A DNA stretch of 64,000 bases. Origin: Bryoerythrophyllum caledonicum. Its lineage: Eukaryota > Streptophyta > Bryopsida > Pottiales > Pottiaceae. Numbering within the stretch: the first letter of the stretch is position 1; every line of letters starts with the position of its first letter. Position numbers and translations under genes: made by a program. Under the pieces are notes generated by a model. That model was not told the origin of the DNA. It saw only the letters and a program-made list of their open reading frames with translations, and did no database searches. The stretch is taken from NCBI GenBank assembly GCA_963971425.1, contig OZ020521.1, positions 2,482,501 through 2,546,500 on the forward strand, read 5' to 3'. Below, piece after piece: positions 5,012 to 57,164 of the stretch.

Positions 5012-5075
5012 GACAAGACCGTGTGAGCGGTCGGAGAGCGTTCGCCGTGAGCGGTGAGCGGTGAGCGAAGATTAG
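5012..5075 (+). repeat. Element A left terminal inverted repeat
   Basis: Contains GTGAGCGGTCGG, a spacer with gttcgcc, then three tandem GTGAGCG units. The same order occurs inverted at 19326-19389. Similar heptamer runs mark the ends of elements B and C. Confidence 0.8.
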
Positions 5076-5183
5076 ATACCTAAAATTAGGATTTTTCAAA
5101 ATTTGCACAATTTTTTTAAAAAATTTGGATACTGAATTAAGTTTTGGGATTTATGGATGTCGAAATTTGGAATATTATATGGA

Positions 5184-5302
5184 CCTATTACCGTGGAGTA
5201 TTTTGTAGCCGCCCTCTTATGAAGGTTATAGGTGATTTCAACTCATCGTAATCTTAAAGATAAACCAATAAAATCCAGGAAGTTGGGGTCCTATTACCGT
5301 GG
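5184..5302 (-). promoter_or_regulatory. Two subterminal CCACGGTAATAGG motifs, element A left end
   Basis: On the minus strand CCACGGTAATAGG occurs perfectly at 5184-5196 and 5290-5302. Variants lie inverted near the right end at 19059-19071, 19143-19155 and 19209-19221. Repeated subterminal motifs are typical transposase binding sites; binding here is inferred. Confidence 0.65.
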
Positions 5303-5604
5303 AACTAGTGCCAAAATTTTGTTTTTGACAATTGTAAATATTAGCCTATGTAGATCCTAAATTACTCTCTTGGGTTAAAGAAACCAGGGATTGGTCTGAA
5401 ATTTGGAACAAATAAAGGAACTGTGCGATTTGCATCATCACATTTGTGGAGTGGAATGAACACTGAATATGTAGCTTCATAATCCAAAAAACATACAAAC
5501 AGAAATAGAAATTAGAATTAGAGAACAATAGAAGAATATTACCTAGGCTTATAATACGTAGGTCTATAGAAACATAATGAGTAACTTATTATCTACCTTA
5601 AGTT

Positions 5605-8600
5605 TTAAACACGCTTGTAGGAAAGAATCGCTCGTACTACGGGCATGAGTTCGTTGAAGCTAAGTGTTGGAGCATGGACAAATAAGTCCTCCATCTCGTC
5701 AAGCTTGCATACGACTGCATAAACAAAGTAGAGATGCTTGCAATTCACCCAAGACCGACCAGATCGGTTGGCCTTTGCTTGCATTGTAACAAAGTCCAAG
5801 CATGTGCAAGCCGGAAATGAACTGAGCGTAAGAATGTAGTGCTCCAGGGCATGGGTAGTTGAGGAGTCAACTTCCAAATCGACAATGCAGCCAAATCCTG
5901 GAAAGGGTACCATTGTGCGCTTCTGAATTTTTGCCTTGAGAGTGAGGGCAGACCCCCATCGCTGAAGCTGTGCAGCGACTGGACTGCCGGAACGACGCTT
6001 CACCACTTTAGTAAAGCGGGACGTAGGATGTTTGTTAGCGTCCTCTGGGGTTGGGTACGCAGCAAGGTCAATACCATCAATTATGGTTGCGTGAAAGTGA
6101 CGGCGGGGAGACGCTTCTTGTTTCTGTGGAAGTTGGAAACCTGCGCGCTCGAGGGCAATGATCTCCGACCGCTTCAGGTTGGTGCCCCTTTTAACAGGCC
6201 AGATTTGGGGAACACTATCCGGGCGAGTAAGAACCCACTTTTTTGAAGTGCCCAGTACACAACGCTGAATGTCGTCTTGGCAAAAATAAAACTCTTGTCT
6301 TTGATTTTTACCTGTGTGGTAATTCGTCCAAATCCCCGTATAAGTGGGACAGGCAGTGGCCTTTTTCTTCTGTATGATCTTCCTTGTGCACTGCTTCCTC
6401 GAGATAGCTTGGAGAGCCCAACAAGCTACACCGGTGCGATGTTTTGGTACTCGGGTGATATGCCATTCTGTTACAACGCAATCAGATTCCTCCACCCCGG
6501 TAACATGTGTAGGTCGAGTCTCGCGGACATGAAGGTTGTCCATAAGAGAATCTTCGTGTCCTATTCCAAGGTCAATGCCGACGTCGACGTCTTCATCTTC
6601 AACAACCTCTTCAAGGACTTTAGAAGTCTTCTGGGCCTTAGCTGACCTAGTCTCTACTCGAGGACGGGAGAAATTGATCTTCTCCGGGCGATGCGAGTCA
6701 AACTCCGATCCTGGGGGTAGATTGAGCTTGCGTTTAGTTGATCCAAAAATTTCCTCACCTGAAAAATGTGGAGGGCGTGTCAAGATGTCCGCTGAATTCT
6801 GGAATTTCTCCATCGCTGCCTTGATTTTCCTGGGATCTCTAGTGTCTTGGGCTCTTCTCAATCGCAATTCGTTCTTACTAGGACCAGTACCTCTACGTTC
6901 ACCCTTCAGGAACGAAATATAATGTGTAACCTACATGAACGCCCTGACATAATCATCCAAAGTAGCTTCAAAGAGGTCGTTCCCCTTGTTTCCAGAAGCT
7001 TGAAGCCATTTGTTGTGCATTGTCTCAGCGAGGTTGCACCTTGGCATGCTTGCCCGCTCATCGTCCGTTAAATCCTGCAAATATTAATCAATTACACGAA
7101 CATCCAATATAGAAAAGTTTTAACTGAAAGGGTACATCAAGCGAATTAGACAATCAGAATTAGTGACTTGCTCACCAAGGTCATAGCTCCACCCCACTGA
7201 AGGTAGCGAAAATGCCAAAACGCTAGCCACTCGTCTAGCTTCATAATGTCTGTATCGCTGGTTACAGCCTTTGCTGAGATCCACCACTCCCTTATAGCAC
7301 GATAACGAACTTCTGCATCGGCGATGGTAGTGGAGTCCTTGTACTGCCTGCAGAGTACTCGGTGTTGCTCACGGAGTTCAGACTTGATATGTCTGTCAGT
7401 GTGCTCGGACATTGACTTAGTCCAATGAAATAGACAAGTTCGTTCTTGGCCGACCATCTTGTCTTTCTCGCTTCCGGATCCGTATATGATGCGGACAGCG
7501 TTCCAATTCGCCTGAGCACTGTCTGCCATAAAGCCTTTAAATACTGGCTTTGAGTGTCCGGCCTCAATGACGACGCCATTCAGACCGTGCCAAAGGAGAG
7601 ATTGCGCTTCAGTGTCCTCCGACTGCATGTCACAGACTGCGATAGTCATGACCTTGGAGTATACCGGATCGTAAACATGGCATGCCATGGTCGTCCAATT
7701 CTTCACACGCTTGACATGGTCAAACATCATCCAAGCGTCTTGTAAATCGCCACCAGGTTGCATTCGGATTACTAAATCAAGGCCAGAACCAGGACCAACC
7801 TCCGACATCTTGAATACAAAAACTTTTCCTTTGCCCTGGCCTGGGAACTTGTTCTCTCGGACGTACGCCCAGTTACTTAGACCAGCCAGATTTGTGATTC
7901 CCTCGATTGGGCCCAGACGGGGGAGTGCTTTCAAACCTGACACAGTATGTCGTAGTTTGGGCGACGTAAACGATTTAAATTTGTCCGCAACTTTGTATAA
8001 CTCATCCACAGTAAGCGGTTGCATCGTCTCTCCGTCTTTCCTAAGAAGAAATTCACCTAAGAACTCCTTACTAGCCTCTAAAACAATCTTAGAATGGGTA
8101 GCACTTGGCATCCTAGACACCTGGTCACTACAAAGAGACTTTACCTTGAGGAGAGATTCACGACATTCACCAACCTTCACGGGATGGTTGTGCATTCCGA
8201 CATGAATGCATGCACGAGTCATATCGCCGGGTCCGCTAGCATAGTAAAAAAGAGCCTCGCACGTACTTATGCATATTGGAGGCGTTCGACATATTCCACA
8301 GACCAAAGTTGACTTCCTTGGTGGGCTTGCACCCACTCCGAAGGGATTCTCGGTACATCCGTCCCACTCTATCTCATTAACCTCGTACAACCGGTGCTCC
8401 CGGTGAAGATAATCACAATCCGGATTAGTGCAGCGAAGGTGCCCCGCGCATGTTGAGTAGCGGAAGGTGAGACCCATATCGTTCTGGATATTCGTAGTCT
8501 TCGTTCGGCACCATGCATGGCCGTCAAACCGCTTGTCCATACCATCCAACATACCCGTTTGCTTTCTCTCGAGTCCCGTCGGCTCAAACTCAAAAATGAC

Positions 8601-9254
8601 ATCGCCATTGTAAAGGGGGGGTAGAAAATTTACCTGATGGACAGGAACTGAATTAAAATCAAGGCGTTTCAGAACATTTCGCCCACCAGGTCTTGTGATG
8701 AGTCTTCGCAAGGAGTCTACAATGCTCCCAAGACGTGATAGAGTTGGAAAGCGAGGTGGTTTCGAAGCGGAATTGGGGTGGCGGGTATCAAAAGCTCGTG
8801 CTTCGAGGTTGACTGTAGCTTGAGAAGGAGCGCGAGGTTGCGACAAAGCGGAATGGTCCACTGAAGGAGGCTCCTCGTCCTCGCTCAACAATATGACAGT
8901 CTCTGTTCCAGGTTCAACCTTCATAGTAACAATCGGATTAACAGTGGATGTTGTCGACAATCCTGGCGTGACAAGTTCAGTGCTTGGTGCCATCTGTGCT
9001 ACTGTAAGACCATTAACTTTGTAGCTACCAGGCAAGAGCCTCCAGAATCGGTTGCCGCCTTCGACAATATCAGGCATTAAGATGTACTGGACTATAACCC
9101 CTGCATCATCTAGGACCTCTTGCTCGATATGAATTGTTCTAACATCTAGGCCATAACGAACACGAAGTATTGATGCCAAGATAGTGCATGACCCGTCAAC
9201 TGCTGGAGGGATAATTAGTGGAACACCAACACCATGGAATCGAAGAGATGCCAT
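5605..9254 (-). pseudogene. SWIM-zinc-finger MULE-type transposase (element A), one nonsense codon
   Basis: Exon 1 is 7176-9254 and exon 2 is 5605-7074, with a 101-bp GT-AG intron at 7075-7175 in phase 0. The start is taken as the ATG at 9254 (MASL), because the copy in element B starts with the same residues. The first 240 residues are poorly conserved. Then comes a Cys/His-rich block (for example GHLRCTNPDCDYLHREH) and a transposase core with FDHVKRVKNW, AVCDMQSED, GFMADSAQANWNAV and ERTCLFHW. I take the Asp residues of these blocks as the likely DDE catalytic set, tentatively. Near the C-terminus CTCLDF followed by NCKH forms a CxCx(n)CxH SWIM finger, used by MULE transposases for DNA binding. 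An in-frame TAG at 6931-6933 (context RAFM stop VTHY) replaces a Gln that element B still has, consistent with CAG to TAG. Otherwise the frame is open, so this is the best-preserved copy. Confidence 0.85.
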
Positions 9255-10357
9255 TAGAAAAACTGAAACGCGAAAGAGAAACAATACCTACCAATGTTCT
9301 TGCAACATTCTCAACTTGCATATATGGTGTTGTTTATAAGGATGGATAACGTGCTGGACTGGTTTAGGTATCCCATGGCGGCGTATACAACCAATATAAT
9401 TATGGTACAAAATAATATAATTAGGTAGAATTAGAACTGAACGACGTAATCGTGAGAAATGAACGACACCAGCAAAAAATATTCCTACATTATTGCCTAG
9501 TTATATTTTGAATTACATCATGGAGAGGTCCGCCGGTACCGGCGCCCAGCGGTCAGTTCAAAGTATTATCAAAAGTAACTTCCATGTTCAGGAGATTGTC
9601 AAATCTGATTCTAAATGGTATAGAATATATAATAGAAAATATCTAATTTAGCATAATAGTGATTATGAACTAGTAACTCGAGCGAAACTGCGGATCGACA
9701 TTAGCATCCACGGTAATAGATGATTGGCGAGAACTATAGGCTGTAAATTATTAATTCGAAGGGGTGTTATATTAACAGCTCTACAAAGTGGTCATAATAG
9801 TTAGTCACATTTCAAGTTAAAGGTAACGAATCTTGGTATTTGAAAGTTGCATAGATATATATTTTAAACCAAATTAATACCTAAACAAACGGGAATTCTC
9901 ATATTGAATAACCATATAGTACTTTTACGGAAAATGCAAGCATCTATAGAAACGATCATGTGCATGATGGACATGATGTTCGCATCTTTGGATTTTGAGG
10001 TTAATCATAGAGAAGTTGACAATTCATAACTGCTATGTTTGAATTCCCTCTTAGTGGTCATTCAATTCGGCGGTGTATGACAATATCCAATCTAAGCTTA
10101 ACAAATGCACGGCGTCTAATATCCCATTATGATTGTTAAGGCATGTTTTGACAATTGTGCTTATATGGGTTTCAAGTTATTGTCTTCCATAAATTTATTC
10201 AGTAGTTGGTGCATATGTCCTGGGTAGAAAGAGAACAGTACTGAATGGATGCCATCAATTGGAGTTCCGTTAGTCTAAGTTGAAGGGATACCTGTGCAGT
10301 TGATGAATTATATCAATGTACTGCCATGTGATATTCTCACTGAGTAGATAAGATATA
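9255..10357. promoter_or_regulatory. Spacer between the divergent transposase and cargo genes of element A
   Basis: AT-rich spacer that must hold the promoters of both divergent genes. It contains one perfect palindrome GCCGGTACCGGC (9532-9543), related to the array in the cargo gene's intron, and one CCACGGTAATAGA motif at 9708-9720. I see no open reading frame worth calling and no single convincing TATA box. Confidence 0.45.
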
Positions 10358-10363
10358 TTGCAG

Positions 10364-10663
10364 ATGCTCGTAAAAGTTGTCGCCGTAACACCTGCCCATT
10401 TAGTTGAGGGAAAGAAGAAGAGGAGGAAACGCGGACTCCTCTTCTCAAGTAGTAAGCAGTTAAGGAAGGCAAGGATGGGAAAACGTAAGGCCCAGATTGT
10501 TGAGGAAGACTTAGGAGATACTCCACGTGTCTTATCATTCGAGAGCGGTCCAAGTGTAAGTTTGACAAGTATGGATGAGGTTGCTGGATTGCGAACAGAA
10601 CATCTGGATGTCAACATTTCAGACAAGGAGAAGGACGAGGGCAATCATCACTTTGAACATTTG
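10364..10663 (+). CDS. Possible 5' exon of the element A cargo gene
   Basis: The open frame begins after a plausible acceptor (ttgcag) with ATG at 10364 and ends at a donor-like site (ttg|gtacgtg at 10663/10664). The peptide has basic stretches (EGKKKRRKRG and KARMGKRKAQ) that could serve as a nuclear localisation signal, followed by an acidic tail. Element B has a comparable charged, low-complexity exon at 42100-42411 in the same relative position, but I see no convincing residue-level similarity. The next acceptor that would join it to 11623 is unclear, so membership in the gene is a guess. Confidence 0.35.
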
Positions 10664-10859
10664 GTACGTGTTCTCATTGATACTTCAAATACCATTTTAT
10701 AGGATAGTTTAGTTTTTTGTGAAGTAACAATCGTTCCATTAGATTCATCTATTTTGTGTTATCGAACTCATTGAATTTAGCATTGAACAATCTTTTAGGA
10801 CCTAAGTGAATGTTGATGTGCTTTCAAACTAATCTTCTTTTCCATACAGTCTGTCACTG

Positions 10860-11300
10860 TAATTTATAATTTTAATTTTATTTTACCCTCCCTCACATAT
10901 TTTTTATTTTTATTTTTATTTTTACTTTACTCTCCCTCAGTTTTTATTTTTTTAAATTTTTTTCAAAAATTTTACTCTCCCTCTCCCTCTGAATTTTTAT
11001 TTATTTATTTGGATTATTCTTGATTTCAATAATAGTATACTATTAATTATGAGTTGTCCATTGCTCCATCCCTCCCTCCCCCCATTTATCATGTTTGAAT
11101 AAAATATTCATGATTGTCCCTCTCCCCCTCCAAACCTTCCTGGAGATTGTAGATTACCCATTGTAGATTTTAATCTAGATTTTTTATTTCAGGATTGTCC
11201 CTCACTTCCTTCTTCTCCCTCTAATTAATGATTTTTTGTTTTGTTTTTGGATTGTCCCTCTCCCCTTTGAATTTTGTTTAAATTGAAGCAAATATGAGTT
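10860..11300 (+). repeat. Pyrimidine-rich low-complexity tract
   Basis: Repeated T runs alternate with CTCCCTC blocks, for example near 10885, 10930, 10978, 11070, 11120 and 11255. The tract lies upstream of the first confident cargo exon and may be intron or promoter sequence. No ORF. Confidence 0.6.
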
Positions 11301-11889
11301 TAATAATTCATGGTTCCACCTGTGACTTCCCGAAAGGAAACAGTACTGCCCAGCTGAACTTAGGTTGGAGCAGTATCACTCCGGTCTAAAGGAGCTTGAC
11401 TTGGATGTCGTTCAACTCCGGTCTAAAGGAGCTTGACTTGGATGTCGTTCATCCATCAGTGCGAACTAAAATTCGTGGCGTCCAGCGTAATCCACGTCCC
11501 ACTAATCGTCCACGCCTCGTTTTCTGTGTGAACTGAAACCCTCTAACGTATATTGGATCTGGAGTTCAGCTTACGAACCCTTCCACAAACCCATTTGCTA
11601 CCTCTAACTTCAGTAGATTGTGATGCAGGCCGATCAGCCTTCAATTGAGTCTAGTGAAGACGCTATCAACGACGGAGATTGGGACGCCATGAACTTGAGC
11701 GCGGTGAATGAGGACGAGGATGGCGGCCCTGTTGAACTTGACAATAACACTCAAGCTGCCGACTCGGTAGCAGGTAAGTATGACGTGAACTCTCCATTTT
11801 TCTGTTTCTAAACTTTGTGAAGTAGAGCTCTATCTCCAAATCTCGCATGATCGGGAAGAGAGTTCGATACTTCGAACTGGCTTACAATG

Positions 11890-13060
11890 GGTCGGCTGGT
11901 GCCGGCGAGGGTCTTATCCTCTTTCAGGGTAACCCGGAACTTGTTGTTGTGGGGTTCAACGGTGCCGGCGGGGTCACGAACCACTACAATTTTGGTTTAA
12001 AGTGACGTCCATTTGATCACCGAATTCTGAAGTTAACTTATCGCCGGTCCCGGCGGGGGTCGAGGAGGGCCTCTAACGCTTCCACCTGATCACGTCGAGA
12101 CTGGGGTCGCCAGTGCCAACATTAGTTAATATTCTTCCCTGAAGCACGTCAAATCCTGAAGTTAGGGTATCGCCGGTGCCGGCGGGGGTCTCTGGTAGCC
12201 TCGAACGCCTTCACCTGATCACTGGCTCAAGGGATCGCACGTGCACGATTTGGTCTAGATTCTGCCCTAATGCTCGTCAGATCCTGATGCTCTGGTATCG
12301 CCGGTGCCGGCGGGGGTCGAGGAAGGCCTTCAACTCTTCTTATCAATCACTCTCAGAGTGGGGTGATTTGTTCTGGCTGAAGTATGTTTTCTACTCTAAT
12401 GCACGTCGAATCCTCAAGTTTAGGTATCGCCGGTGCCGGCAGGGGTCGTGGTTAGCCTCGAATGCAACCTCCTGTTCACTAGCTCACCGCTCGGTACTGC
12501 AGGCTTGGGTCTATATTCTGCCCTGAAGCTCGTCGAACCCTGATGTTGTGGTATCGCCGGTGCCGGCTTCCAGCCTTTCTTCTCGATTACTGAGACTGGG
12601 ATCAACAGTGCCGGCTTGAGTATGTATTCTACTCTTATGCTTGCCGACTCCTGAAGTTAGGGTCTCTTATTGGTGCCGCCGAATCTTGAATTTAATGTGT
12701 CGCCGGTGCCGGCTGGGGTACCGCCGGTGCGCATGGGGTATCGCTGAAGCGCGCATCATGTGCATGGAGTCTGCGTGGCACGGGGTGCATGTGTCCATCA
12801 CTTAAGTAGAAGAGAGCTACAACTAGCTGCTGCTGCCGTGAGTGCCCTGTCTGAACCTACGTACGAAGGACCGGTCCAGATCAGTGGTGCCAACAGACTT
12901 AACGGTACATCCTCCGAACCTGCAGGTATTATGCAACATGAGTGTGAGGAAGGAATCAACATCCACGGCTGGGGTGTCGCCGGTGCCGGCTGGGGTGTCG
13001 CCGGTGCCGGCTGGGGTACCGCCGGTGCCGGCTGGGGTATCGCCTGTGCCGGCTGGGGGT
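11890..13060 (+). repeat. GCCGGTGCCGGC tandem array, main block
   Basis: The exact 12-mer occurs at 12172, 12300, 12429, 12556, 12702, 12979, 13000 and 13021, with variants near 11895, 11960, 12043 and 13042. The first four copies are 127-129 bp apart, so they belong to a longer tandem unit. The copies from 12979 onward are 21 bp apart. The core differs from a perfect palindrome at one central base pair and carries two CpG sites. Confidence 0.9.
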
Positions 13061-13270
13061 GTCGCTGAAGCGCGCACCATGTGCATGGCATCTGCCTGGC
13101 ACTAGGTGCATGTGTCCGTCAATTCAGTGATAGAGAGCTCCAGCTAGCTGCTGCTGCCGTGAGTGCCTTGTCTGACAACCTATGTACGTAGGACCGGCCC
13201 ACATGAGCCCTGTAGGTACATGTACACTTGCCAGTACATCCTCCGAACCTGCAGGTGTTATTCAACTGGG
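12732..13270 (+). repeat. Direct duplication of about 200-330 bp
   Basis: The segments beginning near 12735 and 13063 share tcgctgaagcgcgca, gtgcatggcatctgc-like text, agctgctgctgccgtgagtg and catcctccgaacctgcaggt in the same order. The 21-bp palindrome array sits between them. This looks like one duplication within the intron. Confidence 0.8.
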
Positions 13271-14363
13271 TACAATGCTGTATGGAACAACACCGCGCAA
13301 GGGGACTCATTCATTCTCCACGTTTTTTCCACAGCAAGGGATTAGTCTGGAACTGCTACAGGAAGCGATGAAGGAACGTTCAATTCTCGCATTCTTGAAG
13401 AACTGTTCAGTTTCTGCCAAGCAATTAAGTGTGTCTTGCATAGGGAGCCTAGATACAAGGTCACTGGATTCCTTGTGGTGTTGATCGCAACTTCTAAATC
13501 ATTGGTACGTTCAAGTTTTCATGACTGCATTTCCTTCAACTATCTTTGTAGATTCCTCAATGAGCTTGTCATGTTCAAATACGACATCATACATGTAGAA
13601 TACGGTGGCACCGCTGGCACCATTTGACATCTATGGGAAAAATAGCTCTGGATACAAGTTTGACTAAACTCTTGGAACAGTTTGAGTTTTTGGAGACCAC
13701 TTCGGATCAAGCTCTGATGTGTAGAGGCAACAAGACATGTTGGATATAGATCACGATTTCTTGAAAGTAGAAAGTTTTAAATGTGAAAGCGTCAACCAAT
13801 ATCGAGCATAGGCTTGTGTCCTAAGCGCACACAAACGTGAAGCTGAACCTTGACATGCATAATATTACGTACCCGCATCGTGGCACATTTGCATTTATCG
13901 AACAACGAGCACTAATGGCCAAGCTGGACACGTCCAGGAAGACGGGTAGTCGTTGTGCAGCCGCGAATCCAGAATCGAGTCCAGACCGAGCTTGTTCAGC
14001 CTCAGCTTCGCCTGAGATACGAGGAAAATTTTACATGAATCCGTCATGAAACTGGTGTGTACAAGTTCATGGTATACAGCCCGGTGGATTTAAAATAAAT
14101 TAGTGCCCTTACGCACTGAACGAGGTTGGCTTCCTTGCACTTAATCTCATTCTGCTCATAATCTCAATCTGCTCATAATCTCAATCTGCTCATAAGTTCT
14201 CTCTATGAATACCATTAGGGCGTGCACATGATGGACAATGCTGCATACATGTACATCATGTTGAAGTGAGTGGTTGAGTATAATTTTGATAAACAATGTT
14301 ATTCCGTGCAGGATCTCACGACCTGCACAGATCGGATGGACAGAATTTGGTGTGGAAGGGGTC

Positions 14364-14917
14364 GCCGGTGCCGGCGGGAGTCGATAGATGGTCTCGAAGC
14401 TTCCCAGACTGACAAAGAGAAGGGCTCGCCGGTGCCGGCGACGGTCACGAATTGGAGATCTCAACTTCGCAGAGAGTGGTCCAGTTCGATTTTGCAGTGG
14501 AGCACAGCCGATAATTTGGAGCTCCTGGATTGGGCACCATCTACGAGGGCTCGGTCTACATAGTCAGGACATTTTGAAGATCATATCCATCTTCCATCTT
14601 CAACTGCGTGGACGTGTCATCCTTCCTTTTTTGCTCAGGAATGCATGCAACTTCAGCCCTGAATAGTTCCCATTAATTCGGGCAGGGGAACGATTTTCGG
14701 GCAGATCATGAGATGTGGTTTAGATGCAACCATGACATGATTGACATGGACGGCACGTTGCACGTCGCTTAGAAGATTTTCAACTAAACCAGGAAAACGG
14801 GCAGTCAGTAATTATTAAAGGATATCTCCATCATGTCCAAAACAAGACGCTTGTGGACCAAACCAGCATAGATCTGAATTAGTGCATCTCGAAGTAGAAG
14901 GGGTCGCCGGTGCCGGC
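14364..14917 (+). repeat. Three further GCCGGTGCCGGC copies
   Basis: Exact 12-mers at 14364-14375, 14428-14439 and 14906-14917, each preceded by tcg or ctc and followed by GC-rich sequence, in AT-rich surroundings. The last lies 62 bp before the acceptor of the second confident exon. Confidence 0.85.
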
Positions 14918-19325: not shown

Positions 19326-19389
19326 TGCTCACCGCTCACCGCTCACGCCGACTGCTCACCGACCGCTCACATGGTCAAGTTCTTGACTG
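19326..19389 (-). repeat. Element A right terminal inverted repeat
   Basis: The reverse complement reads CAGTCAAGAACTTGACCATG, then TGAGCGGTCGG, then tandem GTGAGCG units, mirroring 5012-5075. Confidence 0.8.
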
Positions 19390-19399
19390 CTCAATCTCC
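19390..19399 (+). repeat. Target-site duplication of element A, right copy
   Basis: CTCAATCTCC, matching 5002-5011 at 8 of 10 bases. In the hAT reading direction it encodes the end of HLMWRLS, which continues as LSRTEVP on the other side. Confidence 0.7.
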
Positions 19400-24345: not shown

Positions 24346-24370
24346 CGGATTTAGAGATGAATACCGCAGA

Positions 24371-26029: not shown

Positions 26030-26044
26030 AGCTCAGGGGTAGGT

Positions 26045-39679: not shown

Positions 39680-39694
39680 CACATGCTCAGGGGG

Positions 39695-45540: not shown

Positions 45541-47458
45541 TACGGTACCATGTAACAAGTGTTGCAACACACTCTGTTTTTTCACTTAAAACATATCCCA
45601 TGGCCTGATTTAGTATGATGGTGTTGGCATGATAATCATCACATCTCCATGAGATTTTTTGCATCATGGAAGGTGTTCCAGTTACCTTCATACACCATGC
45701 ATTTTCTAAATATAAAGAGGCATCCATTGCCATGTATCTACCAAAATTGCCATCATGCTTAAAAATCTTGGAAAAGGGTACCCTTCTTAATGTAATCACT
45801 TCTTCTCTGGGATATCAGATTTTGAGTATATTTGAGCTTGGGAGGGTCCAGAGATACACATACATGTTTGCAAGTCATCTTGATGGTACACATTTCTTAG
45901 AAAAATTGTGTGCAACAAGTCCTGTTTGTCAAACATATTGTTTCTGTGTTGTTGTTAGGACCTTCTTGATCAAACTTTTTGTGGATGTAAGTGTTGTTTG
46001 AGGATTATGCACCACGACAAGGAGTTATGTATCAAATGATATACGACACATGATAGTTGGTATGCAGAAAGCTGGCATGTCAGTGAGTGAAATTGGAAAC
46101 ATTGTAGGAAGGCCAAAATCGACTATTTCAAGGATTCTCAAGCGATTTAGAATTAGTGGCTCTGTATTGCCAGCAAGTAGGTCCGGTAGGCCGCGAAATA
46201 TGAGTGATCGAGATAGGAGAAAGTTCCATAGAGATCTTAGTAGTAATCGTTGTGCTCCTCTTGCAGAATTGTGCAGCAATGTGACATCTTCCGTGGGCAT
46301 GTCAACTTTACGTAAAGAGCTTCATGAGCTTGGTGTTAACAGTTGCATTGCAGTGAAGAAACCATTCTTGAGTGACATATACAAGGCAAAGAGGTTGGCT
46401 TTTGCAAAGGAGCACTTGCATTGGACGATTGACGATTGGAGTAATGTGATTTGGACCGATGAGTCATCCTTTGAAGTTGGAAAACCATCATGCCAAATTC
46501 GTGTCTGGCGAAAAGCACATGAACGCTACAACTACAATTGCTTAGCACCTACATTCAAATCCGGAAGGATTTCAATTATGGTATGGGGTGCTATCACTGG
46601 CTCTTCTAAGTCTTATTTGGTGTTAATTCCTCCTAATAGACGCACTGCCAAAGACTTTGTAGAGATAGTATCTCAAGGAGCATTAGAGCATTATTATTGG
46701 CACCATGACCACTATGAGCACCTCATTTTAATGGAGGATGGTGCTCCAGTACATGGTAGTAATATACAAAAAGATTGGAGAGAGCAACTTGGATTGAAAA
46801 AGCTTGAATGGCCACCAAATTCTCCTGACCTTAATCCAATAGAGAATGTCTGGAAGCAAGTTAAAGATCAAGTGCAACAGAGAAATAGACCACGAAACAA
46901 AGACGAAATGTGGACATCAGTCAATCTGGCTTGGGAGGATATACCTCAAGAAAGCATCAAGAAGTTGATTTCAACAATGCCAACCCGGATGAAAGCTGTA
47001 ATAGCAGCTCAAGGTGGTAGCACTCGATGGTAGTAGGTGTTCCATTTTACTGTAGAATATTTGTTAGTGAGTAAGACATATTGTAAACTTCATATCATAT
47101 TAGGCTTCTATACTACTATAGCTTTGTAATGATACCTTATTTGACTTTATTTGATCAAATTTTGATTTAATATATGAGTTTGATTTCCTTAGCCTAGAAT
47201 ATGAATGAATGGAAACTATGAAAATACTTTAGAGCCACATAGAGGAGAATTTTACCTACATAGTGTGCATCTTTGTAATACCAAGAATGTGAACAATGAT
47301 ATATCCTATAAATTGGTGCAATCAAATTTTTAAAAATCATCATATATATTTCTCAGTTAAATTTTTTTGAAATTAAGTGAATAAGATAAAATAATTCACC
47401 AAAAATAGAGATTTCATTTTTTGACATTGACATTTTATGAACACGTGAAGGGTCCGTA
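45541..47458 (+). mobile_element. Tc1/mariner-type element inserted in the element B cargo gene
   Basis: Contains a full transposase ORF (46050-47033). A candidate left end TACGGTACCATGTAACAAGT and inverted right end TACGGACCCTTCACGTGTTC share TACGG-ACC and GTGTT and would put TA dinucleotides at both borders. The ends match only moderately, so the borders are provisional. It lies in the intron after the exon that ends near 45449. Confidence 0.6.
46050..47033 (+). CDS. Tc1-like transposase, DD34E (327 aa, intact)
   Basis: ATG at 46050 is the first after an in-frame stop. Residues about 1-45 form a helix-turn-helix (GMSVSEIGNIVGRPKSTISR) that binds the element's ends. The catalytic triad is visible: VIWTDESSFEVG (first Asp), LILMEDGAPVH (second Asp) and PDLNPIENVW (Glu), with 34 residues between the last two, the DD34E spacing of the Tc1 family. 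IRVWRKAHERYNYNC and SGRISIMVWGAI are typical of the family. Length is close to the usual 340 aa and no stop or shift is present. It catalyses cut-and-paste at TA sites in the nucleus. Plant mariners are usually DD39D, so a DD34E copy in this setting is noteworthy. Confidence 0.93.
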   Translation: MIVGMQKAGMSVSEIGNIVGRPKSTISRILKRFRISGSVLPASRSGRPRNMSDRDRRKFHRDLSSNRCAPLAELCSNVTSSVGMSTLRKELHELGVNSCIAVKKPFLSDIYKAKRLAFAKEHLHWTIDDWSNVIWTDESSFEVGKPSCQIRVWRKAHERYNYNCLAPTFKSGRISIMVWGAITGSSKSYLVLIPPNRRTAKDFVEIVSQGALEHYYWHHDHYEHLILMEDGAPVHGSNIQKDWREQLGLKKLEWPPNSPDLNPIENVWKQVKDQVQQRNRPRNKDEMWTSVNLAWEDIPQESIKKLISTMPTRMKAVIAAQGGSTRW

Positions 47459-48024
47459 ACACAAAAGATTTAATAGGATAAATTTGATAAAATCCTCCCA
47501 TATTGAAAATGAATGAGAGAATTTCAAGAGTTCACAAAATGGTTGCAAGACATGTTGGAGGGTACTGTACGTTGTCTTGGAGGCAGAAAGACTCCGACCA
47601 TGTGACACAACAACTGTCACATGATGTGAAGAGAGTGCAACATTTTGGGTTGTTGGACTTTGATCAGCTCAAGGGTCTGATTAGTGACGACGATCACGAT
47701 GCTAGTGTGGCGGAGTGGGCAAGGAAAGGGACCAAAAAGTGGTACCATATGACCTTCAATTCATTCTTGAAGTTATTCTATGAGGTATGATAGGATAAAA
47801 TGTTTCCAAGATTGAGTACTATATGATTTTATGTGTCGCCCTGAATATGTATATGATATGTTATTGTATGTTTATTTGGCAATTATACTGAAACTCTTAA
47901 ATGATTTTTTCGTGTAGCAGGAGCTTATATAGCACCTCAAGAAGATTGTATTCGAACTTACCGTGACACACTTGTGACCGGTGTTGGGGCTGATCGTGTT
48001 GGGGGCTCGGCGGATGTAGAGCCA

Positions 48025-49310
48025 ATATATGAAAAAGGGCTTTTTTCTTTAAAAAAATAGCTTAAAGGGTTTGAAATAGTTCAAAAAGTAGATAGTTAGT
48101 GATAAAAGTTAAGAGAAACTTTAAAAGTAAGTGAAAAACTTAAAATAGCTTAAAGGAAATAGTGCTAGTATGAAAGGACTTAAAGAAGAGACTTAAAAGA
48201 ATAGTCGCACCTTTTAATTAGTTGAAAGGATTTAAGCAAAACTTGAAGGGGTGGAAGAAAAAGGAATAAACCTTTTAAGAAATAGTGTCTCTTCATAGTT
48301 TTAGCTTAAGTGGAGTAGGAATTCATTTTGAATTCACCACATTTGAAGAAGCAATTGTGAGTCCTAGCTTGGAGCTAGCAAATTCTTGCGATGGTTGTAA
48401 GAGTTTTTAAGTTAATACATATTGTGTTGTGTAAATTTGTATTGATTCTAATTGATTAAGTAACTTTGCACATGTGACTTGTGAAAGTGAGTCTTAATAA
48501 TTAAGAAGTCAAACTTTAATTGATTGTAATATCTTAAATGGATAAATAGTTTAAGAAGATTTAAATATTGCACTTATTGAATAAGTGACATTGAAAGAAA
48601 ATAAAACATATTCAAAAAACTAAAAATATTTATGACTAAGAATTCTTATAATAATAATTGAATTACAAGATAAGAGTTCTTATAATTGAAGTGCATTAAT
48701 TAATCTTAATAAATTAATTGCGTCAAAGAGAGTAATGTTATTTTAGAAGAATGCAATTACTTTAAGTTTAAGAGTAATGTATAGTGGATTAAATCAAAGG
48801 AATTAAATTTGATTGAAAGTGTATGTGTTAGAGTATTGATCTCAAAAATGATCATTCCTAAACTTCTAACAAGTGTGATTGTTGAAGTTAATGTGTTTTG
48901 ATGTGGAATCCACTTGGAGCTTAAGAGATTAGCCGTGGACGTACGTGATTAAAGATGGAGCGAATTGCATGAAGTAAGCTTTTCAATTATAAAGAAGAAT
49001 TAATAAACGAACAAAGCAATGAGTTAAGGAATGGATAAATTCCATTCGCCTAGCAAGGCATAGTTAGAGGTTTGGGCACACACACAAGAAAGACAAGAGC
49101 AAGGCTCTTGTCGCAATCACTCTTTTTCTTGGGGTAACATAAAAATTCTCAATCCTTTAAGAGTGTAGATTGTTTAACCCATAAACCTTTAAAATGATGC
49201 ATTATAGTTTTAAGTTTATTATAGAAAACATTTTTATGTGATAATTAGACCAAAATTACTTAAACATTAGACGCCAGACCATCCCGGGAAGAATTTAGAA
49301 TCATATGGAA
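48025..49310 (+). other. AT-rich block interrupting a cargo exon; no gene
   Basis: Repeated words such as cttaaag, taatta and aagagtaatg fill about 1.28 kb without an ORF. In element A the flanking coding parts are contiguous in one exon (15965-16378), so this is probably an insertion. I found no terminal repeats or target duplication to define it. Confidence 0.5.
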
Positions 49311-52163
49311 ACTTGTGTGAGTCTTGGGTGTTTTGCGTGAGTGTAAATTTACGGTTTACAGCGGACTTGGTCACTCTTTGCTCTGAAGCGCTACAAAAGA
49401 AGAAGACACAATGTGGCACTTTACTCACCCGACTTCTTGCCATTGCTGACCCTCGTAATGGTGAAGAGTTTTTTAAAGAAGTAATCGTTTGTGCAATTCA
49501 GGGTACTCGTTCTTTCATCATCATTTAATTCATTTTATAGTATTTATTGACCACTTATTTGTTATTCTTTGATTCAGGTTCTTCATCAATATGATGTTTA
49601 TCAGAACAAGCCAGAAATTACATCAGAGAAGTTGCAACTTCTTTGCACTTCCAAGGTTTCATCGAGGTTCAAAGGTAGATGGATGCGTTGGTGGAATTTG
49701 TCCAAAGAGGGCAGGGATGAATACAATTTCCCAAAAGCACCATGTTCGGAGATCAGTCTTAAACCCTGGCTTGACGTGGTTACATTTTGGGCAGGGGTAA
49801 GTCCAATTTTCTAAAACCATTTTATTGTTTATTTTTCCATCAGTTGTAAGTTATATTTTGTAACATTTTGTTTTCATTGTATAGCTTGAGGTGGAGGCAG
49901 AGAAGTTATTTGCGAAGGTCGTGAAGGAGGAAAATATCACCATTAGAATGGAAGGTCTCATGAACCCGGTGCTGGACATTGGCTAGTGGATTGAGGCCAG
50001 CTCTCTCACATTCTGGAAGAAGGCGTTTAAGAACTATTTTAGTGGGCCAAAGCCGTTTGTGAAGTCTGATGAGTTTCTCAAGCAGCCCAATACACCTCAA
50101 AGTGTCAAGAGAGTGGTGCTCCGATATTTTTGGCGAGAGCTCGTTGCTAACGGAGCATTGCAGCCTCGGGAGTTGTCAATCTGGCTGAGGAAGTGGTGTG
50201 ATACCACTGTCAGCGCTGAGTGTATCTTCACAGAGTCTCAGTTGCGCCGTTTTACTCGACATCACTTGGCTCAGTGTCTTTGGTACTTAGAGCTTTGGCA
50301 TTCAGCTCCAACTCCATGTGACGAAGTGGAACTCCGGGAGTCATGTGATGCCTTGGCAACACATTCTGGAGCGGGTCCAGCTTTGCAAGCTTCAGCTCCA
50401 TTCCAGATTGAGCCTGAGCTTGAGCTCTCTGAAAAGGCCAAGGAGAGAGCAATACAGAAGGCAGCCAGGATCGCAGCTAGAGGAGCAGAGCGAGAAGCGG
50501 CTCGGTTGGAGAAGGAGACTGCAAGGAAGGAGAGGAAAGAGACTCGGATAAGGAACAAGAAATTGGCACCTCTGGTGGCGAAGGAGGGGCCCGAGAAATT
50601 GTTGTCTATCGTGGGTCTTAAATCGTTCTCACAACCGGCACCCGTATTGACAACATTTGGCGCTTCTCCATCTGCCAACAGCCGTCCAGGACCATTCGTT
50701 GCAAAACCAGCGCAGACCACCTATTCGATTCATGTAGTGGAGCAAACAGAGTCCACTGTAGCTGTTGACATTATCAATACCAGCGCTTACTCTATCTTTA
50801 CTGAGTATGATTCAGTTACAGCTGAGGATGACGTTCCGCCAGTTTGGAGGGATATAGCACAGTGGATGATGGCCCATGGCGGATCCAAGACGCGGTACAT
50901 GAAGGGGAAGTTGACTGAGGATGGTTTGGCGGATATGTTCATATTTGACATCCCGGAGGACTTGCCAGTTCCAGGCATTCAGGGTGGTACTATGATTCCA
51001 TCATGGAACACACTACCTACAGTGTCGACCCCCAAGGATCAAAGAGAACCATTGTGGATTCGGTTTAACTTCGAGTTGGCAGAGTCATTTCTTTGTGATG
51101 GAGGAGCTATCATCGTGTTCTATCCTGATTCCAGGTTCATTTCAAATGAACTCGTTTCTTGGGCTTAGTGGTCGGGCTTCGACGAAGAAACGAAGTGATT
51201 TGCCATCAATGGACTTCCTCTCTTCTCTGATGGTCGCCCCGGCCGCGTACACAAGACTTTCATAGTCAAGTGCTTCGTTCGGAAGAAGGATCCTCCAATT
51301 CCATTTGTCTTCAATGACAGAGTGGAGCTTTTGGCGGATGGGATTGAGCTTTCTTCAGACGGTCATCTGACCAACTACATCACCCAGGAGTCACTGACGG
51401 TGAGGGCCTCCACCGCGATGCCATGGCGAGGAGCCAGAGAGAAGTCGTAGAATCTGATAGATCTTTGCACCAAAGAAGATGAGATCGTCATGGACCTCAC
51501 CGCTTCCACTGGTATATTCAATTCATTTCTACATTTGTTTTTTGATTATCCAACCATGATTCTAATTTATTACTGTTTGTATTCCATACCTTTTCCAGAT
51601 GCATCTATCAAGGCTTGCAAAGCCCTTAAGAGTCATATTCTTGCCTTGGAGGCAGACAAGGACTTGGTAGACGAGGTGCTTCGACCCATGATTCCACAGA
51701 CGGTGGAGGTCGATTCTGCAATTGTTGAGCCCATGGAGCAGACTTCTCTCAAGCGCCCTTTGGAGCTTGGTGATGACGAACCAAAGATTAAGATTGCGCG
51801 TAAGAGAACTTATAAGTAAGTTCTCTTCATTCATTTCTTGTTTTCGTTATCTTATTCTATCATTCTTTTTTTCTAATGTAAATCAGTTGCAGACGGTTCT
51901 CGACGTCGTTGATGGCTTCTCTGTCAACACCTCTCATTGGAGTGTTGGCTCGTTTGGCAGGGAAGGTTGTCAGCTTGAAGCAGCCGCATATTTTGCCTGA
52001 GTATGCTGAAGCTGATGCCATTGCATCCGTAGTGCAGCCGTTGCCTCCACGACATCCACCAGCTGCTCGATCCGGCTCCGGAGCGAGCGTTTTTTAGGAT
52101 GACGAGGCTGAGGAGGCTAGTACTGATTCTGATAGTGGTTCTGATAGCAGTATGTCTAGTTAG

Positions 52164-52885
52164 ATAATCTAATAGCTATTGTATTATCATTCACGGATTG
52201 ATACTTAATCAATTTTTATGATGTGTCTTTGAATTTAGAACTATACAATTATCAAATCATGAATAGTATACAATGTTTTGAATATTTTTAGATGGTCCAT
52301 CACTGTCATTCTCTCCATTAACCACCCTAAACCTTCGTATATAAATTACCTTTAACCTAAACACTCATTAGAATAGTACTACATATTTGACTTAATTAGA
52401 ATAGTAATACACATTCAAGAGAATCCTCTACTACAAGTCGCAGAGGTATTCAAGCAAAGCTTATCCATGGTCTTAAGATATTTTCAGTAAAAGAATTTTG
52501 ATCGTTGAATAGATGTAGTTCATCTCCATATTTTTAATTCTATTGTATAAGAAAATAAGGGGATTATAGATGTACTTCTCCCCCATTAATCATATATGAA
52601 ATCGTTATTATTTGGAACCGAAGTTTGCATTGTAATATATATTTCATTATATCTTATCTGTTTACTTTTGGATGTAAATTTTCCCCAAAACTCTAAAAAT
52701 ATTGCCACGGCTATAGGTGCCTCTATTGAATAAACAATAAATTAAAGTGATTGCAAGTCAAGAATTTCTCTTATGTTAATGTTTTTATTTTTATTTTTTG
52801 AAGCACAATCCACCTACACTCACGGCAATAGGTGTTCTTTTTAATTTCACAACAAAAACAATGGTAAAAATTGTCATGAATTCAT
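52164..52885. promoter_or_regulatory. 3' flank of the cargo gene and right subterminal region of element B
   Basis: AT-rich with two subterminal motif copies: CCACGGCTATAGG at 52705-52717 and TCACGGCAATAGG at 52820-52832. No ORF. Confidence 0.55.
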
Positions 52886-52928
52886 TGCTTGCCACTCACC
52901 GCTCACTGCTCACAAGATAGCATTCCTG
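52886..52928 (-). repeat. Element B right terminal inverted repeat
   Basis: Reverse complement CAGGAATGCTATCTTGTGAG followed by CAGTGAGCGGTGAGTGG; matches the left end at 18 of the first 20 bases. Confidence 0.9.
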
Positions 52929-52938
52929 GGATTGAAAG

Positions 52939-54550: not shown

Positions 54551-55179
54551 AAATCATGTTTATGACGCTTTGTTGACCTCATTTGTTGTGTTGGATCTAA
54601 AATTTTGGGAATAATCAACTTTTGAATAACTCAACCCCTAAATTACCAAGAGTCCCCTTGAGGAACTCTTGAAGGTTTGGGCACATTCCTACTATGTCAA
54701 TTGTAACATTCTTTTTTTGAAAATTTTACTGTAGATGGACATTATTAAAACCTTTTTGTGAGTCCAATTATTTTCTTAAATCCAACATTTAATGAAAAAA
54801 TTATATGGTTTTGAAGTTCCAGGAATGCTAGAATGTGAGCAGTGAGCAGTGAGCAATGAGAAATGAGCGGTGAGCAGTGAGTAGTAAGCAATCTATTTTT
54901 TCAGTTGGGCACCCTATAACCACAGATTTATGGTGATTTACAAGAAACAATTTTACATTGTGACCTATTTTTGTGGTATGAAAAAAGTTCAAAATGGGAG
55001 AAAGTTGGATTAAAAAACCCGGAAATAAACTGTTTGGAGGATATTTGGATGAATGTAGACATATGGATGAATGTAGATAGATGAATGTAGATGAATGATT
55101 GTTCAACTTATAGTAAAAAAAATATAGCAACTTCTAAATTATTAGTGTAAAAAAGAAAAAAGAAAAAAGAAAAAAAACC

Positions 55180-55320
55180 AGTCGTAGGGTTCCTCAGTAC
55201 CGAGGAGTGCCTTGAGGGCGAAACCAAAAAAAACAAAAAAAACAAAAAAACTAGCCGAGGGGCTCCTCAGTACCAAGGAGTGCCCTGAGGGCGAAACCAA
55301 GGGAAACAAAAAAAAAACAA
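55180..55320 (+). repeat. Two tandem units with a CCTCAGTACC-AGG near-palindrome
   Basis: Units of about 73 bp share aggagtgcc-tgagggcgaaacc. Each has a near-palindrome: CCTCAGTACCGAGG at 55192-55205 and CCTCAGTACCAAGG at 55265-55278. Undoing CpG decay would give CCTCGGTACCGAGG, close to the palindrome of element B. Separated by A-rich runs. Confidence 0.75.
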
Positions 55321-55404
55321 AAATTCAAAAAAATTAAAATTAAAAAAGAAATTATTAAGAAATTATCGCCCATTAAGAAAAATTCTCCTTAAACGGTTAT
55401 CCAA

Positions 55405-55715
55405 ATTGCCCATTTGGCACTCTAAACTTCTTCGTATATTTGAATACAAAAATTCTTGCTTCCACTACAATTTTACATAATTTTACAATTCTTGCGTCCA
55501 CTACAATTTGAGTGAGGGGAAAAATGCACCTTGGTACCAAAGTGCCCATTTGGCACTCCAAACTTTTATATAATTTTGGAATAAAATTCTTGCTTCCACT
55601 ATAACTTTACAGAATTTGAGTGAGGGGAAAAATGGCACCTCCGTACCAAAGTGCCCATTTGGCACTCCAAAATTTTATGTAATTTTGAACACTAAAATTC
55701 TTGCTTCCACTATAT
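55405..55715 (+). repeat. Three tandem units of about 110-135 bp in element C
   Basis: gcccatttggcact recurs at about 55408, 55544 and 55653, each followed by attcttgc-tccacta; the second and third are preceded by tgaggggaaaaatg. Located just before the transposase remnant. Confidence 0.8.
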
Positions 55716-55886
55716 CCTCATTGCAGTGGAGCATTAGGCAAACGCAAAGCGTGGGTGAACTGCAAACACTTGTATTATGTATAAAGATTCTTGTGCAAGG
55801 CAAAACTGGAGGACGACAAGTATATACATGCACCAAGTCTTAGTTTCAATGAAGTACAACTCCTACTCCGCAATAGTAATCTCTAA
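55698..55886 (+). pseudogene. SWIM transposase C-terminal remnant in element C
   Basis: In the frame with TGG at 55752 the sequence reads HCSGALGKRKAWVNCKHLYY, then a TAA (55782-55784), then FLCKAKLEDD and IHAPSLSFNEVQLLLR and a final stop at 55884-55886. ALGK, NCKH-YY, CK-L, HAPS and FNEV match the A and B transposases. It includes the last Cys and His of the SWIM finger but not the first CxC. Its 3' end points to the right terminus, so C is inverted relative to A and B. Confidence 0.85.
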
Positions 55887-57164
55887 GTTTTTTTTGTTTT
55901 GGTCATAATAGTTATGGCAAATTATTGCCTCTTTTATAGTTTAACTTTGAAACTACACAAAACTTTGGATGGCCAAAATGGCTCCTTGGTACCCTTTTGG
56001 GCTTCACAAAAAACTTGTGAAGTTCAATGATTTTCACTTGTAGAAATAGTAGAATTTGTTGAGGAAACAAATTTAGAAACATGTTTTACCCATTGTTGGG
56101 AACGGGAAAAAAAATCAAAAAATTAGACAAAAAAATAAATGGGCCTACTAGGCTCTTTGGTATAGAAGAACCCCTTTTGACTTCTTAAAAATCTTGTAGT
56201 TCAGTGATTCATCTTCACTCTTGAAAGGTATATTTTTTTGTGGCATGAATTATGAAGCACTGTAAACTAACATAGTTTTTGTTTCCCATTAAATTTAATG
56301 TCGCTCATAGAGAAATTTTCGTAAAACTAGATGAGATTTTGAATGAATACCCTAAATTTCATTCATCTATAAACTCTGTCCATCCATGAAATATATCATC
56401 CAAAATTATTCATCCATTTAATGGCGAGAAATAGTCAACTCCATATTAAAGTTTGGTTAGGTTTGTCCCTAAAATTCAACATTTATTTTCATGTGAAGCA
56501 ATTTCATAGCCCATTTGTAGGTGAAAAATCACAGAAGACATTTGTAAACCACGGTAATAGGTTGCGAAAAACTATTTTTTAAAAGAAAATTCCAAATATA
56601 ATTTATAGGAAATTTCTATAATTAGGATATTCCTGTCCCTTTTTATCCTCCCTCCTCACTGCTCATTGCTCACCGCTCACCGCTCACTGCTCACATTCTA
56701 GCGTCGTTGTTTGAAGTTCATATGGGGAGAGCGGGCACATAGAGCAACTCCAAATTTTTTTGTTAGGACACTCTTTTGAATGTGAGATTTTTGATACAAG
56801 AAAATATTATTATTTCCTTTGATATCATAAAAAAATTCTCTTGTCTTTAGTGAGAAATAGCACATTAACCCAAATCAAACATTTTCACACATTGTCGGGC
56901 GAGGTACCAAAAAAATTCCTCTTATTCACAAAAAACTTATAGTTTTTCATTTTTTTTAACATTTTATTTTTTCTACTTCAAGATGTGGTGTAAACCTTCT
57001 TATTGACCACTTGGATTCTCATTCTAAAACAAATGAGGTTCACAAATAAACATAACGTGAATTGACAATCTTTGAGCCTCCACTCCTAACACATTTTTTT
57101 GAATCGGCTACACTCTTTTTTTACCTCTAAAAATTGGTGTACAAGGAACTAATATCATGCGTAA

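What the first reader, a model, noticed from the sequence alone, without database searches (positions are those of the whole stretch)
5012..56709. A family of giant cargo-carrying Mutator-like elements, three members in one window
A (14.4 kb), B (18.4 kb) and C (1.9 kb) share CAG/CAA ends followed by GTGAGCR heptamers, a subterminal CCACGGTAATAGG motif, 10-bp target duplications and the same SWIM transposase. A and B also share a divergent second gene. Two-gene Mutator-like elements are known (MuDR), but I know of none with this second gene.
Basis: partly seen in the sequence, partly recalled or inferred. Interest (0 to 1): 0.93.

Follow-up and report, generated by a model that had tools for sequence, protein, structure and literature searches.

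The report
Giant plant transposons with methylase-like gene
Three jumping-gene copies in this stretch of a green-plant genome belong to a large family of unusually big DNA transposons that carry, besides the gene for jumping, a second long-conserved gene resembling a bacterial DNA methylase, a kind of partner gene already reported on algal transposons.

Summary
A (5008-19385), B (34536-52928) and C (54820-56709) are transposon copies with inverted ends, GTGAGCR heptamers, a subterminal CCACGGNNATAGG motif and 10-bp target duplications (exact in B and C, one mismatch in A). Elsewhere, 20 of 20 end pairs I chose carry 9-10-bp duplications; uninterrupted sites exist for A and a related copy. The second gene is not casual cargo: it lies divergent to the transposase at 97 of the 127 best-scored transposase loci, is intact in an element on another contig and is under purifying selection (dN/dS 0.11; 47). 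Its C-terminus is an N4/N6 DNA methyltransferase domain (26, 28, 60, 85, 118) whose motif-IV aromatic residue is Asp/Glu in 13 of 13 sequences covering it; its N-terminus has a DGNHR-like motif that I read as ParB-like (not confirmed). A ParB-like/methyltransferase gene opposite the transposase is in print for a brown-algal Sola1 transposon, with similar proteins said to occur on green and red algal ones. So: a new variant of a known, barely described kind. 'Mutator-like' fits but is not proven. A and B are decayed; C keeps only a transposase remnant.

The parts
4998..5007 (.). left 10-bp target duplication of A (ACGGCTCAAT)
5008..19385 (.). element A, 14,378 bp, inserted in a repeat (hAT-like fragments on both sides)
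   Evidence: ends and TSD; six uninterrupted paralogous sites
5008..5066 (+). left terminal inverted repeat of A with GTGAGCG heptamers
   Evidence: 84.7% over 59 bp to the right end
19327..19385 (-). right terminal inverted repeat of A with heptamers
5184..5302 (-). two left subterminal motifs CCACGGTAATAGG (5184-5196, 5290-5302)
19059..19221 (+). three right subterminal motifs (19059, 19143, 19209), each one mismatch from CCACGGTAATAGG
5605..9287 (-). transposase gene of A: exon 1 7146-9287 (713-aa open frame), later exon(s) about 7080-5608 with one in-frame stop; CxC...CxH SWIM-like finger near the C-terminus (by eye)
15020..18456 (+). second gene of A: matches to the intact gene at 15020-15562, 15656-15853, 15965-16378, 16484-17365, 17463-17795, 17901-18164, 18268-18456; two in-frame stops
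15404..15442 (+). FHVWDGNHRLQAW motif (ParB-like by resemblance only)
17532..17549 (+). motif IV region of the methyltransferase domain of A (FDVPEG)
18141..18170 (+). motif I region of the methyltransferase domain of A (VILDATAATG)
19386..19395 (.). right 10-bp duplication of A (ACTGCTCAAT)
34526..34535 (.). left duplication of B (GGATTGAAAG)
34536..52928 (.). element B, 18,393 bp
35234..38774 (-). transposase gene of B, several stops
   Evidence: 41% to A exon 1
44923..51819 (+). second gene of B, broken; methyltransferase part about 50932-51690; a nested Tc1/mariner-type ORF lies at 46002-47033
52705..52832 (+). right subterminal motifs of B (52705-52717, 52820-52832)
52929..52938 (.). right duplication of B (GGATTGAAAG)
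54810..54819 (.). left duplication of C (TTTGAAGTTC)
54820..56709 (.). element C, 1,890 bp, non-autonomous deletion derivative
55713..55871 (+). remnant of the transposase C-terminus inside C
56549..56561 (+). right subterminal motif of C
56710..56719 (.). right duplication of C (TTTGAAGTTC)

Best explanation
A, B and C are copies of a large family of two-gene cut-and-paste DNA transposons. Shown: inverted ends with heptamer arrays and subterminal motifs, 10-bp target duplications, a SWIM-type transposase, and a divergently transcribed second gene that accompanies the transposase in three transposase clades (one copy examined in the third) and is kept by purifying selection. Shown: that gene encodes a protein of at least 1,027 aa whose C-terminus is an N4/N6 DNA methyltransferase domain (beta class by motif order) with an altered motif IV. 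Inferred: the transposase binds the heptamers and cuts at the ends; the second protein binds element DNA, plausibly the conserved CCACGGNNATAGG motifs, and through its methyltransferase fold marks or shields the element (self-marking or anti-silencing), so that copies stay expressed and mobile. A and B are decayed copies that would need proteins from intact copies; C is a deletion derivative.
For: TSDs: 18 exact 10-bp, 1 with one mismatch and 1 exact 9-bp of 20 chosen end pairs, which are 19 independent insertions. Empty sites: 300/300 bases at 100% across the C4 insertion point; six places at 94-97% across A's. Pairing: 97 of 127 transposase loci (the best-scored of 2,584 candidates) have a divergent second gene within 20 kb (2 other orientation, 28 none listed) against 0.66% for random positions; A clade 22 of 27; one copy of a third clade has it too. 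Intact gene with GT-AG introns in the C4 element. dN/dS 0.113 over 852 codons. Recent movement: C4 and C8 copies 99.8% identical over 3,852 bp. Methyltransferase: Pfam N6_N4_Mtase 1.1e-4, NCBIfam DNA methyltransferase 7.6e-6 (28), PHROG 1.3e-7 (85), DpnA 7e-4 and CcrM 0.0045 over most of the domain (60), phage methylases 95.9% probability over 64 columns, score 66 against at most 34.8 in 40 shuffles (118).
Against: No biochemical or expression data. All 13 sequences that cover motif IV have Asp/Glu where CcrM and three phage methylases have Tyr or Phe, so base methylation may be lost. Pfam and NCBIfam scores stay under the curated cut-offs. Which protein binds the subterminal motif is untested. 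For the N-terminal region no ParB match was found in Pfam, PDB, PHROGs, phages or plasmids, and two of nine copies have Trp for the Arg of DGNHR. Pfam MULE models do not match the transposase. 36 transposases of the third clade had no listed partner; only one was examined.
Confidence: 0.55

Rival explanations
1. The second protein is a transposition cofactor (synapsis, end recognition or integration), comparable in role to maize mudrB; the methyltransferase fold is a catalytically dead DNA- or SAM-binding scaffold.
For: Motif IV aromatic residue replaced by Asp/Glu in 13 of 13 sequences covering it; co-occurrence with the transposase; purifying selection on the domain all the same. The passage seen says mudrB is apparently required for integration in maize.
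Against: The SAM-binding motif I and motif X regions are kept. The passage on the comparable algal genes proposes that they bind and epigenetically modify their own transposon, itself untested.
Confidence: 0.3
2. The second gene is an active base methyltransferase that acts genome-wide, for example to resist nucleases or alter host gene expression, rather than on the element itself.
For: The domain class acts on DNA in bacteria and phages (names of the matches).
Against: Altered motif IV. Nothing in the sequence points to genome-wide action.
Confidence: 0.1
3. The second gene is a captured host gene of no use to the element (Pack-MULE-like cargo).
For: MULEs often capture gene fragments (stated in PMC6446971, passage seen).
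Against: Full-length, in the same divergent place in copies of clades whose second genes are 39-66% alike, purifying selection, about 1,780 first-look candidates in the genome of which the 150 scored in each search all matched, pairing.
Confidence: 0.02
4. A, B and C are chance arrangements of nested repeats or assembly artefacts.
For: The window is repeat-rich and B holds a nested Tc1/mariner ORF.
Against: Matched ends, target duplications that differ from copy to copy, and empty sites.
Confidence: 0.01

Closest known systems
Sola1-1_Ec32 of Ectocarpus (brown alga), PMC12477816
   Different: Sola1 transposase there (its 4-bp target duplications are recalled); here a SWIM-type, MULE-like transposase with 10-bp duplications in a green plant. 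ParB-likeness is unconfirmed here; motif IV is altered here and not discussed in the passages seen. The two proteins were not aligned
Mutator-like elements (MULEs), incl. MuDR and MULE-Mucorales
   Same: 8-11-bp target duplications, inverted ends, SWIM finger, sometimes a second ORF (PMC6446971, passages)
   Different: no Pfam MULE match; the extra ORFs or motifs named in the passages seen are mudrB, MutB, vanB/vanC, SET, OTU, FAR1, PMD and others; the word methyltransferase has 0 occurrences in that text. Size: a review passage says no Pack-MULE of the founding report exceeded 7 kb (PMC6431247)
VANDAL21/VANC of Arabidopsis
   Same: extra gene of a MULE acting against silencing through short repeated motifs in the element (PMC5735166, passages)
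   Different: VANC is not described as a methyltransferase in the passages seen; sequence homology with VANC was not tested
Retrotransposons carrying DNA methyltransferases (DIRS with Dam-like N6A methylase; dinoflagellate and charophyte elements with DNMTs)
   Same: a mobile element carrying its own DNA methyltransferase (PMC5890265, passages)
   Different: retrotransposons, with other methyltransferase types
Fungal DNA transposons with TET/JBP dioxygenase
   Same: DNA transposons with a DNA-base-modifying partner gene (PMC12730594, passages)
   Different: dioxygenase, not methyltransferase; hAT and IS3EU are among the transposases named there
Bacterial ParB-methylase (Bce_0392)
   Same: possible ancestor architecture: ParB domain fused to an adenine methylase (PMC5512222, passage)
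   Different: bacterial; not fetched and not aligned here

Membership tests
Mutator-like element (MULE) | target duplication of 8-11 bp | tested here: met
   20 of 20 chosen pairs 9-10 bp; A, B, C and the C4 element; the C12 copy
Mutator-like element (MULE) | terminal inverted repeats | tested here: met
   A 84.7% over 59, B 83.7% over 43, C 87.3% over 55, C4 element 76.5% over 102; imperfect, carried by heptamer arrays
Mutator-like element (MULE) | transposase matches the MULE/Mutator Pfam domains (PF10551, PF00872) | tested here: not met
   0 of 69 (window plus 68 relatives) at E 0.1; one B exon PF00872 E 0.15; 138 places of the genome do match PF10551 (of 150 scored, 384 candidates), none of them inside the window
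Mutator-like element (MULE) | DDE catalytic core alignable with MULE | tested here: inconclusive
Mutator-like element (MULE) | SWIM zinc finger (common, not universal) | tested here: met
   PF04434 over cut-off in relative P0087, the only one of 69 to match (most of the 69 are first-exon products that end before the finger); CxC..CxH pattern seen by eye in A, B and the C4 element
KDZ transposon | KDZ transposase domain (that Pfam holds such a model is recalled) | tested here: not met
   no KDZ model among the Pfam matches of 69 transposases
ParB-like/methyltransferase accessory genes of algal DNA transposons | gene on the strand opposite the transposase, product about 1,000 aa | tested here: met
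   divergent at 97 of 127 loci; at least 1,027 aa, first exon predicted by me
ParB-like/methyltransferase accessory genes of algal DNA transposons | N4/N6 DNA methyltransferase domain | tested here: met
   Pfam scores of 20.5 and 22.7 stay under the curated cut-off of 26.7
ParB-like/methyltransferase accessory genes of algal DNA transposons | ParB-like domain | tested here: inconclusive
   motif DGNHR in 6 of 9 copies seen, DGNHW in 2 (L056, L058), NGNHR in B; no match in Pfam, PDB, PHROGs, phages, plasmids
active beta-class DNA methyltransferase | motif IV [DNS]-x-P-[YFW] (definition recalled) | tested here: not met
   D-[IV]-P-[DE] in 12 and D-V-H-E in 1 of 13 sequences covering it; three phage relatives have DLPY, DLPY and DLPF, CcrM DPPY
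VANDAL/VANC anti-silencing system | VANC homologue | not tested
   no VANC sequence was on hand

The most novel reading that the evidence does not exclude
A mobile 'ParB-like plus methyltransferase-like' module has been taken up by unrelated transposase lineages (Sola1, others in red and green algae, and here a MULE-like lineage) as a self-recognition and anti-silencing device. In this lineage its methyltransferase has changed its catalytic motif (D-[IV]-P-[DE]) under selection and now works on another substrate or as a SAM-dependent reader that binds the CCACGGNNATAGG motifs.
Probability: 0.25. Interest if true: 0.82.

Novelty: new variant of a known kind. Interest (0 to 1): 0.62.

Why it matters
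How large DNA transposons survive epigenetic silencing is poorly understood. Here is a family with recent copies, an intact second gene, conserved cis motifs and non-autonomous derivatives, so the question whether a transposon-borne methylase-like protein marks its own DNA becomes testable by long-read modification calling and binding assays. It also suggests that the ParB-like/methyltransferase partner gene reported on algal transposons sits on a further, MULE-like transposase lineage in a green plant, with an altered active site.

Tried and rejected
Whole-protein search of the spliced second gene in the 5.8-billion-protein set gave no hit; an alignment of its methyltransferase part found 23. 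Viral contigs: alignment A2 had no usable stretch, A1 and the transposase gave no relative. PHROGs on single exons gave one hit at E 0.11 of unknown function. Rfam gave nothing. tblastn of the methyltransferase part in phages gave 392 records at E up to 10, the best listed 0.007; the three regions I fetched and used had E 0.02 to 7 at 20-22% identity, and none showed a ParB fusion by length (254-260 aa). A first hhalign test against this genome's MULEs used a template in which minus-strand loci were not turned, so it is discarded; the corrected one is. Three of 20 right-hand flanks were cut 20 bp off; their TSDs were read again. I suspected at first that the C12 copy shared A's two stops; one search shows it does not. 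ParB: phage P1 ParB was fetched and not used; tblastn of the N-terminal region in phages and plasmids gave 4 and 9 records, all at E 1 or worse. Species: the rbcL genes show a green plant, by recall of rbcL types; no closer name was obtained. Literature: 10 searches were accepted. Of nine papers I saw passages only; PMC12695648 and PMC13182070 added nothing used. The gene pair is described in the passages of one, PMC12477816; of the two works it cites for green and red algae, one look-up failed and the other was not looked up, so I read neither.
Full report
1. What is in the window. The genome is a eukaryote of 437 Mb with rbcL genes of green-plant type (type recalled); the species was not established. 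Element A spans 5008-19385 (14,378 bp), B 34536-52928 (18,393 bp), C 54820-56709 (1,890 bp). Each has inverted ends built on GTGAGCR heptamers (23 of the window's 32 heptamers lie in these six ends; 9.1 expected in the whole window) and is flanked by a 10-bp duplication, exact in B and C and with one mismatch in A. The motif [CT]CA[CT]GGNNATAGG occurs 7 times in the window, all within 300 bp of an end; of the 9 looser matches, one (9708) is interior.

2. The family in the genome. The exact motif CCACGGTAATAGG occurs 260+282 times against 1+2 for the reversed control. The A-type end pattern with up to two mismatches occurs 130+110 times against 4+3. From the 100 listed of these 240 places I chose 20 convergent pairs 5.9-18.8 kb apart and read their flanks (two further listed pairs, at C1:11607838 and C1:37123505, were not read; A and the C12 copy were read apart). 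18 have an exact 10-bp duplication, one a 10-bp duplication with one mismatch, one an exact 9-bp duplication. Two of them (C1:418627 and C1:1415968) have reverse-complementary duplications and look like one insertion in a duplicated segment, so the independent number is 19. A full copy on C12 (15.3 kb) has CCACTTCCAC on both sides. A related element on C4 (12.3 kb, different outer ends) has GGCGGTCGAG twice.

3. Empty sites. Joining the flanks of the C4 element with one copy of the 10 bp and searching the genome gave seven places: one identical over all 300 bases, 6.7 kb upstream on the same strand, as the other LTR of the same retroelement would lie (inference); four at 76-78% that span the junction; and the element's own two flanks. 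For A there were 32 places: six at 94-97% running through the junction over all 300 bases, A's own two flanks, and 24 weaker ones at 66-77%. So insertion adds the element and a second copy of 10 bp.

4. Two genes. The transposase lies on one strand; the second gene runs the other way. In the C4 element the second gene is intact over seven exons with GT-AG introns and no stop, plus a first exon that I predict; 1,027 aa without the last exon. I listed 127 transposase places (the scored ones of 2,584 candidates) and 253 second-gene places (union, each the 150 scored of about 1,776 candidates). 97 of 127 transposases have a divergent second gene within 20 kb (median 4.9 kb), 2 another orientation, 28 none listed; random positions give 0.66%. 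In the A clade it is 22 of 27. For a third clade (about 50-52% to A) 0 of 36 had a listed partner; I examined one and found the second gene 4.4 kb away, divergent, at 39% identity, so the zero reflects the capped list at least there; the other 35, and the ends of this clade, were not examined.

5. Selection and age. The intact gene against a roughly 75-90%-alike copy (L059, which has one stop) gives dN/dS 0.113 over 852 codons (dS 1.08, dN 0.12); against L061 0.21 over 1,001 codons; against the near-identical L060 0.43, from very few changes; for more distant copies dS is saturated while pN stays at 0.265-0.325. Copies on C4 and C8 are 99.8% identical over 3,852 bp, and 14 transposase places round to 100% identity over 311 aa: the family moved recently. 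A's transposase has one in-frame stop and A's second gene two. At the place of the first of these two, of 31 loci looked at 23 read an open codon, two have a stop (A itself and L017) and six gave no usable match; the second place was readable only in the C12 copy, which is open there. Both genes of B are broken.

6. What the second protein is. Its C-terminal 270 residues match DNA N4/N6 methyltransferases: Pfam N6_N4_Mtase E 5.1e-4 for the whole protein and 1.1e-4 for the part (scores below Pfam's cut-off), NCBIfam DNA methyltransferase 7.6e-6 (far below that model's cut-off), PHROG DNA methyltransferase 1.3e-7, DpnA 7e-4 and CcrM 0.0045, the latter over positions 14-230 of 272, phage methylases at 95.9% probability over 64 columns against shuffles reaching 46%. 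The order of motifs (IV before X and I) is that of the beta class (class naming recalled). Motif IV reads D-[IV]-P-[DE] in 12 of the 13 sequences that cover it and D-V-H-E in the other (28 sequences looked at, 15 do not reach this part; several of the 13 are close relatives of each other). The CcrM alignment sets it against DPPY; the three phage methylases read DLPY, DLPY and DLPF by eye. That the aromatic residue stacks on the flipped base is recalled. Because the change is shared by relatives 26-31% alike and the exon that holds it has dN/dS 0.20 (E5), it is not simple decay.

7. The N-terminal part. A 200-residue conserved region holds DGNHR in 6 of 9 copies seen, DGNHW in two and NGNHR in B. 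It resembles ParB/sulfiredoxin domains from memory; a passage in PMC5512222 says a conserved Arg in the active-site pocket is typical of that superfamily. No search confirmed it. The parallel with the Ectocarpus gene makes it likely but not shown.

8. The transposase. 91 relatives were found in the protein set, at 35-60% identity, none with a functional name. One contig length (362,076) recurs for a transposase relative (P0070) and a methyltransferase relative (P0102), which suggests that both genes share a contig elsewhere (inference). No MULE, Mutator or KDZ Pfam model matches any of 69; SWIM matches one. Profile comparison with this genome's own MULEs is in the right register but hardly above shuffles (22.0 against 21.5).

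9. Mechanism. Most likely a cut-and-paste element whose transposase uses the heptamer ends, with a second protein that binds element DNA and marks or shields it. Steps shown: structure, insertion, pairing, selection, domain class. Steps inferred: which protein binds which motif, any methylation, any anti-silencing effect. The altered motif IV is the strongest argument for the rival that the domain no longer methylates bases.

10. Comparison and novelty. The passages seen in PMC12477816 describe the same kind of gene pair on a brown-algal Sola1 element and say similar proteins are reported on green and red algal transposons. The present family differs in transposase, in 10-bp duplications, in a green-plant host and in the altered motif. 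I rate it a new variant of a known kind. I saw no MULE-like element with such a gene in print, but this rests on the ten searches named in Tried and rejected, in an open-licence library only.

Noticed in passing
46002-47033: Tc1/mariner-type transposase ORF (Pfam DDE_3 7.4e-19) nested inside the second gene of B, between matches to exons 1 and 2.
   Followed up: partly
4206-4661 and 19403-20227: Coding fragments that look hAT-like on both sides of A (only a sub-threshold Pfam hAT match, E 0.11); A sits inside a repeat with six near-identical uninterrupted copies elsewhere.
   Followed up: partly
43340-44673: Array of about six 219-bp tandem repeats inside B, upstream of its second gene; similar in position to the GCCGGTGCCGGC-rich repeats of A at about 11870-14940.
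   Followed up: no
G000 C1:6209520-6216547, C1:20691659-20698553, C2:194526-201494, C2:5553175-5560409, C11:19406545-19413358, C12:22285974-22293074, C14:208102-215094: Seven elements of 6.8-7.2 kb with A-type ends and target duplications but no transposase or second-gene match in the capped lists: probably non-autonomous derivatives; contents unread.
   Followed up: no
G000 C1:418627-430764 and C1:1415968-1428102: Two 12.1-kb copies with reverse-complementary target duplications, 1 Mb apart: a duplicated inverted segment or an assembly duplicate.
   Followed up: no
G000 C821, C590: Two clearly different rbcL genes in one assembly: perhaps a second plastid genome from another alga or plant in the sample.
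   Followed up: no
G000, 138 places: The genome also carries ordinary MULEs that match PF10551; none of the listed places lies in this window.
   Followed up: partly
31579-31726: GAA tandem repeat of about 50 units.
   Followed up: no
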